Below the pieces are notes generated by a model that was not told the DNA's origin, did no database searches, and saw only the letters and a program-made list of their open reading frames with translations. From Golubevia sp. BC0850 (Eukaryota > Basidiomycota > Exobasidiomycetes > Golubeviales > Golubeviaceae): a stretch of 64,000 nucleotides of DNA. The position numbers were made by a program, and so were the translations under genes. The stretch covers positions 1,922,001 through 1,986,000 of the forward strand of contig JAAVVG010000001.1 of NCBI GenBank assembly GCA_012976225.1, in the 5' to 3' direction. This document shows positions 22,954 to 27,729 of the stretch, piece after piece (position 1 is the first letter of the stretch; every line of letters begins with the position of its first letter).

Positions 22954-24329
22954 TCATTTATCAGTAGACCAAACTCCTTCTGGATGAAGTTTCTTTCATG
23001 CCGAGAGAGAAAAGGGGGGGGGTTGTCAGCGTCTCCTTCTGTTGTCTCCCAGAAGTTCACCAAGAACTCACCTCCTCGTCAATCTCAATCGTAGCCAAAG
23101 CGTCACAAACTGCCTTTCCACCCCAATCCTCCAGAACTTCCACTTCTTCAGGAGTGATAAAAGCAGAAGTAGTTCGATTGGCAAAGATCATTTGAACAGC
23201 CCCAGTTCTAATTCTACCTTTTTCAACGACGTTTGGATCCGATTCTATGAGTTGAGAAGCACACAGTGCAAGGTGGTTCAGGAGATAGGTTTCCATTTCT
23301 AGAGTTGAGGTGTTGGCTAATGGAGAAATTAAAATAGAGAAACTGAGTTATGGAATCATGCAGGGTGAGAAAAAGGTGGAAGTAGAAGAGGAAACTCACG
23401 TCTTCTCTCTTGAAGAACTTCGATGAGATTAGCATTAGCATCTAAGAAATGACTTGAAATCCTACCTTGACTAGAATAAAAGCTATCGGCAGAAGCGTTT
23501 GTAATGTCTCCAATGGCTCTAACTTTATTACCGCCAAACAAATCCTTCTTAACTTCAGGCATTGAACTTTCCAAAGATTTCAACAATTGATCATGTACTT
23601 CTCCATCACAATCCAGTGGTCTAGTAATGATATAAGGTTCAATTTCACCTTTACTTCTCATTTCAGCCGTAATTTCCGGATGAAAATAATCGCAATTCCT
23701 CCAAATTCCATAAGAGGTCTTTGGAACGACCAAGGATCCAATAGGTGAATTATCAGATAAAGATCCACATGAACCCATTCTAACGATGATTAAATCTCCG
23801 GAAACTATGGCTCTGACTTCTCTTACGAAGAAATCTACAAGGGAAAACCCCATTCCTATGGCTATGACTGTGATTGGAACTCCTTTGAATAGACCGGTTA
23901 AGGTCAGGAATTTACGTTGAGATTCATGAGTGAAGATGGGTTTTCCACCATCGAAATGTTTGGCTATGCGATGTGCTCGGGTGTGATCTCCTACGGTGAT
24001 GATTCGGTTTGCGACCCTGGAGAAGAGAAGGGATGAGCGAAGTTGGGAAGCGTAGAGAAAAGATGAGGCTGATCACTCACTCTCCGGGTTTGGTTCCGAC
24101 CTTGAAGATGAGGAAGGTTGAGAGAATCAGTTGAAAGTTATTGGAATGGAGAAGGAGAAGGAGAGGGAGCTGTAACTCACATGATAGGTTGCTCCTAAAG
24201 AATCTCGCTTTTGAAGGGTCAGAGTGGGGTACGAAGAGAGAAGAGTTGGAAGATGAGATGATGAATAGACGATTGATTCAATAGAATGCGACTTACAGGG
24301 AAGTTGGCATCTAGTAAAACGTTCTTCAT
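22954..24329 (-). CDS. Uridine phosphorylase-like nucleoside phosphorylase
   Basis: Minus-strand exons 24329-24297, 24207-24181, 24100-24081, 24016-23400, 23316-23072 and 22992-22954; 326 residues. The enzyme splits uridine (or a related nucleoside) with phosphate to the base and ribose-1-phosphate in pyrimidine salvage. Visible features of the PNP/UDP family: VGTKPGEVANRIITVGDHTR (phosphate site), FTHESQRKFLTLTGLFKGV, VITVIAIGMG-like PITVIAIGMGFSLVDFF, the RMGSCGSL motif, and STLEMETYLLNHLA, the Glu-Met-Glu ribose-binding motif. The C-terminus has GRIRTGAVQMIFANRTTSAF. Four exons are very short (33, 27, 20 and 39 nt) and several acceptors are AAG rather than CAG/TAG, so the small-exon joins are the least sure part; each was chosen by phase and family fit. 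Confidence 0.85.
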
Positions 24330-24461: not shown

Positions 24462-27256
24462 ATGGTAGATTCAAGCTTATCGCCAGTTGAAGGAAATGAA
24501 ACTCGTTCACTTTGTGAGTAAAGCCGAACAGGATCCAATGGAGGGTAGCGAGGGAGAGCTGCTTGCTGCTTCCATCCCACTGATAAGAGTCACTCTCTTG
24601 GACTTTCAGTCTTCTACGGGACTTTAGTTCATCCAGCCATTCTATCGAGAATCATAGGCTCACCTGGATCAAATCTAACAGTTCAGAATGCGATTCTACC
24701 CAATTACTCAACGTTTCATGTTAAAGGAGCAGATTATCCTGGTCTCCTCGATCCTCAAAGAAAGCAACAACTGATTCCAGATTCGTCAGAAGATCCAATC
24801 GCAGTACCTGGAACTTTGGTCTCAGGTCTCACCTCTTCAGAATTGCTACTACTAGATGGTTTCGAAGGTGAATCCTATGAGCGACAACCTTGTACTGTCA
24901 TTCTAGATCCTCAAGCATCATCAGAACTAAATACTTCAAGACCTAAAGATGCTTCTTTAGCTTCTATCCTATCTGGTTTAACATCCAAACATGTTCAAGA
25001 ACTTTTGGAAGATGGAGAAGGAAAACAGGAAAAGCAATGTGAGACTTACGTTTGGATAGATTCTTTGGAGAAGTTAGAGAAGGAAACTTGGGATTTCGGT
25101 CAGTTTGCTCGAAGTCATGCTCATAGATGGGTTGGAAAAGGCTTAACAGAAGAAGTTGAATCTGGATTTGGTGAATCAGAAGGTTCTCATGCTTGGGAAG
25201 AATATGCTGCTGTTGATAAACTTCGAGAAGCTTCAAGTACAAGTAAAGAGATTGAACAACCTTTCATTCCTGAACCTATTGCCTCAAGTTCAAATCTTAA
25301 TATAGCTCTACCTGCAGCTTCAGTGCCAGATCCATGGGCTACTCAAGATTCAATCCATTCAACTTCTGCTCCTGCTGTTGAACCTGCTAATCCTTGGGCT
25401 GTGGCTACTCATGCTGAAAGTATTCCTAATTCAAATGAATCCAAGAGGAAAGGAAGTTTGGAAAGGAAGGATTCTTTGATTGAAGAAGATGGAGAATTTG
25501 GGATGGAGAAATTTGGAAATAGCGCAAAAAAGAGATGGTGGAGTCATGCTCAAGGATACACGAATTTGAATAATGGTGAGTCGTTCAGAATCTTTCATGC
25601 AGCATCTGAGGAATATTGAGCACTGATCAATGCTCGTTTCTTATCCAGGTTCTTTTGGTTCTTGTCCTAGACCGGTTTGTGAAGCTTTCAAAGCTTTGCA
25701 GGATAAAGCGGAAGAGCAACCGGATGTGAGTCACAACATTTCGAGATTTTGTCTTTCTTTATCAGAATCTCTTGACCTGTATTGAGTCAGAGCTTGCTTT
25801 CGGATAAGGGTATCGAGAGGAACCAGAAGTCAAACTAGCCCTTCTTTCTCACTTCTCTCCGCCTCATTCTCTCAGTTCCACCTCCTCAAAACCGAACCAG
25901 CTCTCTATGAAGCCGCAATTGAACGTCTTTCTGAACTCTTAAATGCTCCATCAACAGAGATCGCTCTGGTGAATAACGCAACTACAGCTACAAATGCAGT
26001 TCTTCGAGACATTCATTGGGAGAAGAATGATGCCATCTTAGTTCTCTCGACTGTCTATGGAGCTGTAGAAAGGACTCTACAATATCTTTATGAAACTCAT
26101 CCTTCAAACCCTACTACCGTGATGGTAGAAATTAATTATCCAATGAAACATGATGAAGTTGTCAAAGCTGTCGAGGAAGTGGTTTCCAAAACTAAGAAAG
26201 AAGGGAAGGTCAAATTGAGGTTGGGAATTGTGGATGCTATTACAAGTGCTCCGGGAGTGATTGTTCCTTGGGAAAGGTTGGTGAAAGTCTTGAGAGATCA
26301 GGGAATAATGTCTTTTGTGAGTTCGCGAGGTTCTTCAAAAGATTTTCAAAGGACTTCCCATTCATGCCTCAGAACTCACAGTCTCACTTTCTCTGCCTCT
26401 CCGTCTACCTTAGATCGATGGAGCTCATGCGATTGGTCAGATACCTGTGGATTTAGGCTCTGCTCAACCGGATTTCTTCGTCTCTAACTGTCATAAATGG
26501 CTTTACGCCAAACGAGGTTGTGCAGTCTTCTACGTGCCGAAAAGGAATCAACACATCAACAAATCTAGTCTACCTACAAGTCATTGGTACATGAACGAGC
26601 CGACTGAGGAGAAGAACAATTGGTGAGTGCTGTTTATCGCTCTAATAATTTCATTCCCTTGAACAACGACTCAAATCACTTCATTTGACCTTCTTTTTCA
26701 GGAAACTCCAATGGTCAGCTTTTGGAACAGTGGAAATGGGAACCCTTTTAAGTGTCTCTGCAGCTTTGGACTTTAGGGGAAAGCTTGGAGGAGAAGTTAG
26801 AATCCGAAATTACAACAATTCGTTGGCTAGAAGAGGAGGAGAAGTTGCTGCTAAGATTCTTCAAACTGAAATCATGGAAACTGAAGATGAAGAATTGACC
26901 GCTGCGATGGTCAACGTGAGATTACCTTTAATGAATTCGAAAGTCAATGAGGAGAATTGGTATAAAGTTCGAGTTTGGATGATGGAGACTTTGACGAATG
27001 AGTATAAAACTGTGATGCCGGTTTTTAGACATAATGAGAAGATGTGGGCTAGGATTAGTGCCCAGGTTTGGCTCGAATTGAGTGACTTTGAATATGGCGC
27101 GAGGGTGAGTAAAAGCAAAGTCGGTATCAAGGGGAGAGCTTTTTTTTTCTTTTTTTTCTTTTTTGCTCCAATGCTTACCTCCTTCTCTGTTTGTTTCTTC
27201 GGCAGGCTCTGAAAGCTATTTGTCAACGTATCAACTCGGGAGAAGTCACTATCTAG
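24462..27256 (+). CDS. AIG2/gamma-glutamylcyclotransferase - Egt2-like PLP lyase fusion
   Basis: Exons 24462-24513, 24610-25575, 25649-25725, 25876-26316, 26414-26622, 26702-27104 and 27206-27256; 732 residues. Residues about 17-200 are an AIG2/GGCT-like domain: [17 protein letters not shown] (the YGTL substrate loop), [18 protein letters not shown] with the expected catalytic Glu, and closing [21 protein letters not shown] linker of about 120 residues has DPWA and NPWA. From about 340 onward it is a class V PLP enzyme: [48 protein letters not shown] and [19 protein letters not shown], with the Schiff-base Lys in HKW. It resembles fungal Egt2 as I remember it, the PLP C-S lyase of ergothioneine synthesis. 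Both domains lie in one uninterrupted 966-nt exon. Met at 25503 could serve as an internal start for the lyase alone. Confidence 0.85.
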
Positions 27257-27729
27257 TTCAACAATCGAATCATTCTACAAGCATCATCATTTCGACGAAT
27301 ATACATCGCCTCGGTCTTTCATCTCTTTGTCGTCAGTCTTTCTCGACGATTTTTTGCTTGACGCTTCAAAGCAAAACTCCAAAGATTTGCACATCGTTCC
27401 AGACTTGCTAGTTGTTCTCGACTTCGTGGTGAACTTGGAGGAGAGCCTCGACTCGAGAAGCTCTTTCTACTCTCTTTCTCTAATTGTCCAGCATGAGTTA
27501 CTGATGACACAAGAGCGAGACGAATAATGAATCCTCAAAAGTCAGAACAGAAGAGACTCCCTTGGCGGCACTATGTACCATTGGAATATTGGAAGACGGA
27601 ACCGAACGACTTAGTACGACCTACGAGTGTACGCATGATAAGATCGTATGAGGCACTGCTTCATGGTATACTATAAAACATCATCAAAAATACTTCAGAC
27701 ACCAAAATGATTCAACAGTAATTTCCGAA
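27257..27729. other. intergenic: upstream of ABC transporter
   Basis: About 470 bp. It contains the 3' end of the fusion gene and the promoter of the transporter; no supported gene and no clear site. Confidence 0.55.

What the first reader, a model, noticed from the sequence alone, without database searches (positions are those of the whole stretch)
24462..27256. Gamma-glutamyl-acting AIG2/GGCT domain fused to an Egt2-like PLP C-S lyase
Seen: one 966-nt exon runs without a stop from an AIG2-like fold (YGTL loop, LDGFEG Glu) through a linker into the start of a class V PLP enzyme whose later exons resemble fungal Egt2 ([19 protein letters not shown]). Known: bacterial ergothioneine synthesis uses EgtC to remove a gamma-glutamyl group, then the PLP lyase EgtE; fungi normally use Cys directly and need only Egt1 and Egt2. 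Inference: this fungus may couple a gamma-glutamyl-removing or 5-oxoproline-forming step to C-S cleavage in one protein, or channel Cys from gamma-glutamyl peptides. I do not know of this fusion being described.
Basis: partly seen in the sequence, partly recalled or inferred. Interest (0 to 1): 0.85.

Follow-up and report, generated by a model that had tools for sequence, protein, structure and literature searches.

The report
Ergothioneine lyase fused to glutamyl-removing domain
A fungal gene reads as one predicted protein that joins a domain folded like enzymes that strip a glutamate tag to a domain of the family that finishes the antioxidant ergothioneine; the same pairing recurs across basidiomycete fungi and would likely let one protein do both steps, and our text searches found no paper on it.

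Summary
A seven-exon gene (24462-27256, +) reads as one 732-residue predicted protein. The 966-nt exon 24610-25575 carries an AIG2/GGACT domain, a linker and the start of an Egt2-type PLP lyase. The pairing is not peculiar to this fungus: 28 of the 120 listed relatives of the PLP half carry AIG2 in front, from all three basidiomycete subphyla, and a further search adds the yeast Rhodotorula toruloides. Trees of both halves share the split of Ustilaginomycotina from the rest, which suggests one old fusion with later losses. The fused forms are not a separate paralogue family. Both catalytic motifs look intact. The genome has Egt1 and one Egt2-type gene found, this one. Likely mechanism (untested): AIG2 removes a gamma-glutamyl group as 5-oxoproline, then the lyase splits the freed cysteine S-oxide, so that one protein does the jobs of bacterial EgtC and EgtE. 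Against a plain 'Egt2' label: two substrate-side residues of Neurospora Egt2 (Arg75, Phe304) are Leu and Ala here, and its Exobasidiomycete relatives have a remodelled pocket. New variant of a known kind.

The parts
24462..27256 (+). whole gene, 7 exons: 24462-24513, 24610-25575, 25649-25725, 25876-26316, 26414-26622, 26702-27104, 27206-27256; 732 aa predicted protein
   Evidence: exon model with GT...AG introns; homology to Neurospora Egt2 runs on across the exon junctions of the PLP half
24510..25136 (+). AIG2/GGACT (gamma-glutamyl cyclotransferase-type) domain, residues about 17-193, interrupted by intron 24514-24609; YGTL loop at residues 20-23, catalytic-type Glu103 at 24864-24866
   Evidence: Pfam, fold, motif conservation, positions
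25137..25493 (+). linker, residues about 194-312, mostly predicted disordered
   Evidence: low pLDDT, open frame
25329..25400 (+). paired short motifs DPWA (residue 258) and NPWA (residue 278) shared with Exobasidiomycete relatives
25503..25505 (+). internal ATG (Met316) at the start of the lyase half: possible alternative start
25506..27247 (+). Egt2-type PLP C-S lyase half, residues 317-729; PLP lysine Lys540 at 26495-26497; the Tyr of STVYG corresponds to Tyr134 of Neurospora Egt2

Best explanation
This gene reads as one predicted protein joining an AIG2-type cyclotransferase domain to an Egt2-type lyase, and it likely removes a gamma-glutamyl group as 5-oxoproline and then would split the C-S bond of the freed cysteine S-oxide, probably as the last ergothioneine enzyme of this fungus. 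Shown by sequence: the open joined frame of exon 2, both domain families and both catalytic motifs, the recurrence of the pairing across Basidiomycota, all three parts of Egt1 and no second Egt2-type gene found in the genome. Inferred: the splicing, that both halves are active, that they work in sequence on one substrate, and that the substrate is hercynylcysteine sulfoxide with a gamma-glutamyl group, made by Egt1 when it takes gamma-glutamylcysteine instead of cysteine. On this reading the protein works like bacterial EgtC plus EgtE, but removes the glutamyl group by cyclisation instead of hydrolysis.
For: One exon spans both halves. 28 of 120 listed PLP-half relatives carry AIG2 in front; 33 of 34 proteins found from the Rhodotorula AIG2 half carry both Pfam domains. 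The AIG2 tree (30 rows) and the PLP tree (39 rows) both split Ustilaginomycotina from the rest (97/95; 99/94 for 12 rows). Holding the 14 fused rows of that tree as one clade is rejected (p 0.0005), so fused forms are Egt2 orthologues and not a side family. Tyr134, Ser196, Asp221, Lys247 and Arg438 are kept in the window. A catalytic-Glu motif is present in 61 of 64 AIG2 halves. A full-length fused relative is modelled at pLDDT 91.5 and its lyase part matches Egt2 best. The own genome has the three Egt1 parts and only this Egt2-type gene was found. In-trans precedent: in shiitake a gamma-glutamyl-cysteine sulfoxide loses its glutamyl group and is then cut by Lecsl (PMC4460571, abstract and introduction); that gene (LE01Gene02830, PMC6930676 passages), as Lecsl2, gave some ergothioneine in vitro (PMC11677154, Results and Discussion, part 1 of 2).
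Against: Arg75 and Phe304 of Neurospora Egt2 are Leu and Ala in the window; among 16 Exobasidiomycete relatives Arg75 is kept in 5, an aromatic 304 in 4 and His276 in 0. Sympodiomycopsis has both a remodelled fused protein and a standalone one with the canonical pocket. Egt2 homology does not guarantee the function: Aspergillus egt2a lowered ergothioneine in engineered yeast, where Egt1 alone sufficed (PMC9502471, passages), and shiitake Lecsl1 gave none (PMC11677154). The 62-fold preference of Neurospora Egt1 for cysteine (PMC9103826) speaks against a main gamma-glutamyl route. After Asn414-Trp415 EgtB has Asp416 (its contact with the substrate is recalled, numbering inferred); the window's Egt1 has Asn-Gln-Tyr there. 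The genome has other gamma-glutamyl enzymes: one ChaC, three GGT loci and two weak GATase_4 matches. 92 of 145 PLP relatives examined have no AIG2 half found. No expression data.
Confidence: 0.4

Rival explanations
1. Same two-step chemistry, other substrates: the protein would process gamma-glutamyl-cysteine S-conjugates or S-oxides in general (glutathione conjugates, lentinic-acid-like compounds), and ergothioneine is a minor or lost role in the Exobasidiomycete clade.
For: Remodelled substrate side with intact PLP residues in the Exobasidiomycete relatives. Sympodiomycopsis keeps a second, canonical protein. Shiitake Lecsl acts on S-methyl-cysteine sulfoxide and cysteine (PMC4460571 abstract).
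Against: The window genome has Egt1 and no other Egt2-type gene was found. Fused proteins outside the Exobasidiomycetes keep Arg/Lys75 in 49 of 49 and Trp304 in 46 of 49.
Confidence: 0.28
2. Cysteine supply: the AIG2 half does not touch the lyase substrate but would free cysteine from gamma-glutamylcysteine near the ergothioneine enzymes, or acts on other gamma-glutamyl amines, with the fusion giving only co-location.
For: The fold matches human gamma-glutamylamine cyclotransferase bound to 5-oxoproline (3juc); fungal Egt1 is described as using cysteine.
Against: Cysteine is used by Egt1, which is a separate protein here; AIG2 is fused to the step after it.
Confidence: 0.2
3. Two products: most transcripts or translation events start near Met316 and make a plain lyase, and the joined protein is minor.
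For: An ATG with G at -3 and +4 stands at 25503; the lyase from there would be 417 aa, near the size of standalone relatives.
Against: The first ATG has A at -3 and G at +4; the joined architecture recurs in three subphyla and linker motifs are shared with relatives.
Confidence: 0.07

Closest known systems
Fungal Egt2 (Neurospora crassa, PDB 5UTS)
   Same: PLP half related over its whole length, E 3.4e-84, PLP-site residues kept
   Different: No AIG2 domain; Arg75 and Phe304 are Leu and Ala in the window
Bacterial EgtC plus EgtE
   Same: Proposed order of events: glutamyl removal, then C-S cleavage (pathway in PMC4493562 passages)
   Different: EgtC hydrolyses and is another family; the EgtE model matches only weakly (36.4 bits, cut-off 400); here one chain
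GGACT / AIG2-like proteins (human GGACT 3JUC, Arabidopsis At3g28950)
   Different: Here the domain is fused in front of a PLP lyase
Shiitake Lecsl2 with gamma-glutamyl transpeptidase
   Same: Glutamyl removal followed by an Egt2-type C-S lyase in a basidiomycete
   Different: Two separate proteins, and the remover is a GGT
LolT Mannich cyclase (8DL5)
   Same: Next nearest solved PLP relative
   Different: Groups with the ascomycete Rasamsonia protein; union with the window rejected

Membership tests
Egt2 (hercynylcysteine sulfoxide lyase) | groups inside the fungal Egt2 tree and not with LolT | tested here: met
   (union with LolT and Rasamsonia p 2e-56)
Egt2 (hercynylcysteine sulfoxide lyase) | PLP-site residues Tyr134, Ser196, Asp221, Lys247, Arg438 | tested here: met
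   residue roles from PMC10805701 passages
Egt2 (hercynylcysteine sulfoxide lyase) | substrate-side residues Phe48, Arg75, His276, Phe304 all kept | tested here: not met
   Phe48 and His276 kept, Arg75 to Leu and Phe304 to Ala; so described as an Egt2-type orthologue, not filed as a proven Egt2
Egt2 (hercynylcysteine sulfoxide lyase) | activity on hercynylcysteine sulfoxide | not testable with these tools
   no assay
GGACT/AIG2 (PF06094) | Pfam score over the curated cut-off | tested here: met
   35.4 against 22.8 bits
GGACT/AIG2 (PF06094) | gamma-glutamyl cyclotransferase fold with YGTL loop and catalytic Glu | tested here: met
   fold; motifs; that Glu103 equals Glu82 of human GGACT is inferred, no residue-level alignment to GGACT was printed
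GGACT/AIG2 (PF06094) | release of 5-oxoproline | not testable with these tools
   no assay
EgtE (TIGR04343) | score over the NCBIfam cut-off | tested here: not met
   36.4 against 400 bits
EgtC | glutamine-amidotransferase-type domain | tested here: not met
   at E up to 1 Pfam lists only Aminotran_5, GGACT and a sub-threshold DUF5092

The most novel reading that the evidence does not exclude
Basidiomycota invented a third route to ergothioneine: Egt1 can take gamma-glutamylcysteine, and a fused AIG2-Egt2 enzyme, born once near the root of the phylum, strips the glutamyl group by cyclisation and then cuts the C-S bond, a convergent one-chain replacement of bacterial EgtC and EgtE that tolerates or salvages the gamma-glutamyl intermediate.
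Probability: 0.2. Interest if true: 0.8.

Novelty: new variant of a known kind. Interest (0 to 1): 0.6.

Why it matters
Fungal ergothioneine synthesis is described as needing only Egt1 and Egt2 with free cysteine. A recurrent gamma-glutamyl-acting domain on Egt2-type lyases in a phylum of ergothioneine producers suggests an overlooked gamma-glutamyl branch or a link to glutathione turnover. It is directly testable in Rhodotorula, where EGT1 and EGT2 are already engineered for production (PMC11089744).

Tried and rejected
Rejected: chance open frame; artefact of one genome; PLP half as LolT-like; fused forms as a separate paralogue family; a second full gene copy at C11 ~1902 kb, where only the 3' end is copied. 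Other splice sites at the exon 3/exon 4 junction, looked at by eye, gave no frame with an Arg at position 75.

Led nowhere or weak: the window's AIG2 half as a query found 11 smut acyltransferase-AIG2 proteins and missed the fusions, so that search is no census. The whole-genome Pfam search for Aminotran_5 did not list the window's own gene, so 'only one found' is a lower bound. The length of RtEGT2 (RHTO_04309) is not in the passages seen, so its identity with the fused R. toruloides protein P0138 is likely but not shown. Papers on EgtB substrate contacts (listing) gave little. The figure of 62-fold comes from a review passage whose compound numbers, and one neighbouring sentence on which substrate Egt1 uses, are inconsistent.

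Text searches on the fusion: AIG2 with Egt2, 0 papers; ergothioneine with cyclotransferase and C-S lyase, 0 papers; ergothioneine, gamma-glutamylcyclotransferase, basidiomycete (two of three): 209 papers, 20 listed, none of the 20 with the cyclotransferase word. Subscription papers are mostly not held.

Full report
Observation. The gene lies at 24462-27256 on the + strand. Seven exons joined by GT...AG introns (all donors GTGAGT, 73-150 nt) give 732 residues. Exon 2 (24610-25575, 966 nt) runs from the YGTL loop of an AIG2/GGACT domain through a linker into the start of the PLP half. Pfam finds GGACT (17-116) and Aminotran_5 (373-661), both over their cut-offs. The PLP half matches Neurospora Egt2 at E 3.4e-84 and then 8dl5 (LolT, named) at 1.6e-64. 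Chance of an open 118-codon linker is about 0.002.

Spread. Of the 120 best relatives of the PLP half listed (of 777 over the threshold, themselves from a capped candidate set), 26 carry both Pfam domains in the table and 28 carry an AIG2 half by BLAST. They include Jaminaea, Parajaminaea and Sympodiomycopsis (Ustilaginomycotina), Rhodotorula, Sporobolomyces, Microbotryum and Phenoliferia (Pucciniomycotina), and Naganishia, Kwoniella, Ceratobasidium, Rhizoctonia, Tulasnella and Serendipita (Agaricomycotina). Subphyla were looked up for Jaminaea, Sympodiomycopsis, Rhodotorula, Naganishia and Serendipita; the others are recalled. A second search from the Rhodotorula taiwanensis AIG2 half gave 34 proteins, 33 with both domains, one from R. 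toruloides. One database name calls a fused protein 'hercynylcysteine S-oxide lyase, partial' (Phenoliferia). Databases thus hold the architecture; the text searches found no paper that discusses it.

Descent. I built a quick tree of 77 of the 147 PLP rows and a careful one of 39 rows with LolT. Basidiomycete rows form one side of a branch (86/86, not starred). Within it stand Ustilaginomycotina (12 rows, 99/94), where the window sits in a 9-row group of Exobasidiomycete proteins (99/97), and the other two subphyla together (89/89). The 14 fused rows held as one clade are rejected (p 0.0005), so fused and unfused proteins are mixed as orthologues. The AIG2 tree (30 rows, of 65 AIG2 halves counting the window; unrooted) shows the split of Ustilaginomycotina from the rest at 97/95, but is poorly resolved inside (7 of 27 branches starred). 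The simplest story is one old fusion with later loss of the AIG2 half; the tree counts 6 changes and cannot tell gain from loss. In Exobasidium, Meira and Tilletia proteins the AIG2 half is missing from the gene models while the linker motifs DPWA and/or NPWA remain in their N-terminal parts, which fits loss after fusion. In smut proteins the AIG2 half stands behind an acyltransferase instead.

Genome. Egt1 is present on contig C8: a methyltransferase match, then DinB-type and sulfatase-modifying-factor-type parts recognised by eye in the translated exons, and matched to EgtB-type structures. The lyase query finds this gene, a 3' fragment copy, and two weak matches (E 0.05 and 0.47). One GGACT locus was found, this one. 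ChaC (1), GGT (3 loci) and two weak GATase_4 matches exist, so the AIG2 half is not the only gamma-glutamyl-acting enzyme.

Mechanism. In bacteria EgtB joins gamma-glutamylcysteine to hercynine, EgtC hydrolyses the glutamyl group, and the lyase EgtE finishes (PMC4493562, passages). Fungal Egt1 is described as going directly with cysteine; a review gives Neurospora Egt1 a 62-fold specificity for it (PMC9103826, passages, with inconsistent compound numbers), which leaves room for some gamma-glutamyl product. In shiitake a gamma-glutamyl-cysteine sulfoxide (lentinic acid) is first freed of its glutamyl group and then cut by Lecsl (PMC4460571, abstract and introduction; its abstract prefers to call Lecsl a cysteine desulfurase with both activities). 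That lyase (LE01Gene02830, PMC6930676 passages), as Lecsl2, gave a little ergothioneine in vitro, while the related Lecsl1 gave none (PMC11677154, Results and Discussion, part 1 of 2). Glutamyl removal followed by an Egt2-type lyase is therefore a described sequence in a basidiomycete, in two proteins. The fusion would put the two steps in one chain. That both halves act in sequence on one molecule, and on which one, is inference. The changed pocket keeps the rival of a broader S-conjugate enzyme alive.

Practical anchor. R. toruloides EGT1 and EGT2 (RHTO_04309) were added together in extra copy; the chosen strain made 1.5-fold more ergothioneine, with titres from 0 to 170.5 mg/L among the transformants, and in the best one EGT1 transcripts rose 77-fold and EGT2 2.2-fold, so the gain cannot be credited to EGT2 alone (PMC11089744, abstract in passages; section 8). 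I saw no mention of an AIG2 domain in those parts; that RHTO_04309 is the fused P0138 is likely, not shown. PMC9502471 (passages) reports that Aspergillus EgtA (its Egt1) alone gave ergothioneine in yeast and that adding the Egt2 homologue egt2a lowered it, so Egt2-type homology is not proof of the role.

Verdict. A real, widespread and, in the texts searched, undescribed domain architecture of basidiomycete Egt2-type lyases. The fusion as such is shown at the sequence level; the gamma-glutamyl branch is a testable inference.

Noticed in passing
window 26932-27369; copy at G000 C11 about 1902.4-1902.8 kb (L020:4882-5313), - strand: A 443-column copy (87.8% identical) of the gene's 3' end and downstream flank lies about 46 kb away; only the last part of the lyase is copied.
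   Followed up: yes
window 25329-25400: DPWA and/or NPWA linker motifs recur in 14 of the 156 proteins fetched, all of the Exobasidiomycete group, and stay in the N-terminal part of Tilletia, Exobasidium and Meira proteins without AIG2. They could be short binding sites; function unknown.
   Followed up: partly
P0121-P0131: In 11 proteins, the named ones from Ustilaginaceae-type smuts, the AIG2 half sits behind a PF01553 acyltransferase: true fusion or merged gene models, not tested.
   Followed up: no
P0018 and P0062 (Sympodiomycopsis kandeliae): One species with both a remodelled fused protein and a canonical standalone one that groups with smut proteins; could be an old paralogue or a transfer.
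   Followed up: partly
P0007 (Orchesella cincta): A springtail genome entry encodes an Egt2-type protein of 747 aa, on a long branch beside Umbelopsis: transfer or contamination.
   Followed up: no
window 23356-24072 (-) and from 28333 (+): Neighbours: a nucleoside phosphorylase-type frame (PF01048) on the opposite strand and an ABC-transporter-like frame (PF00664, below its cut-off) downstream; no ergothioneine link seen.
   Followed up: partly
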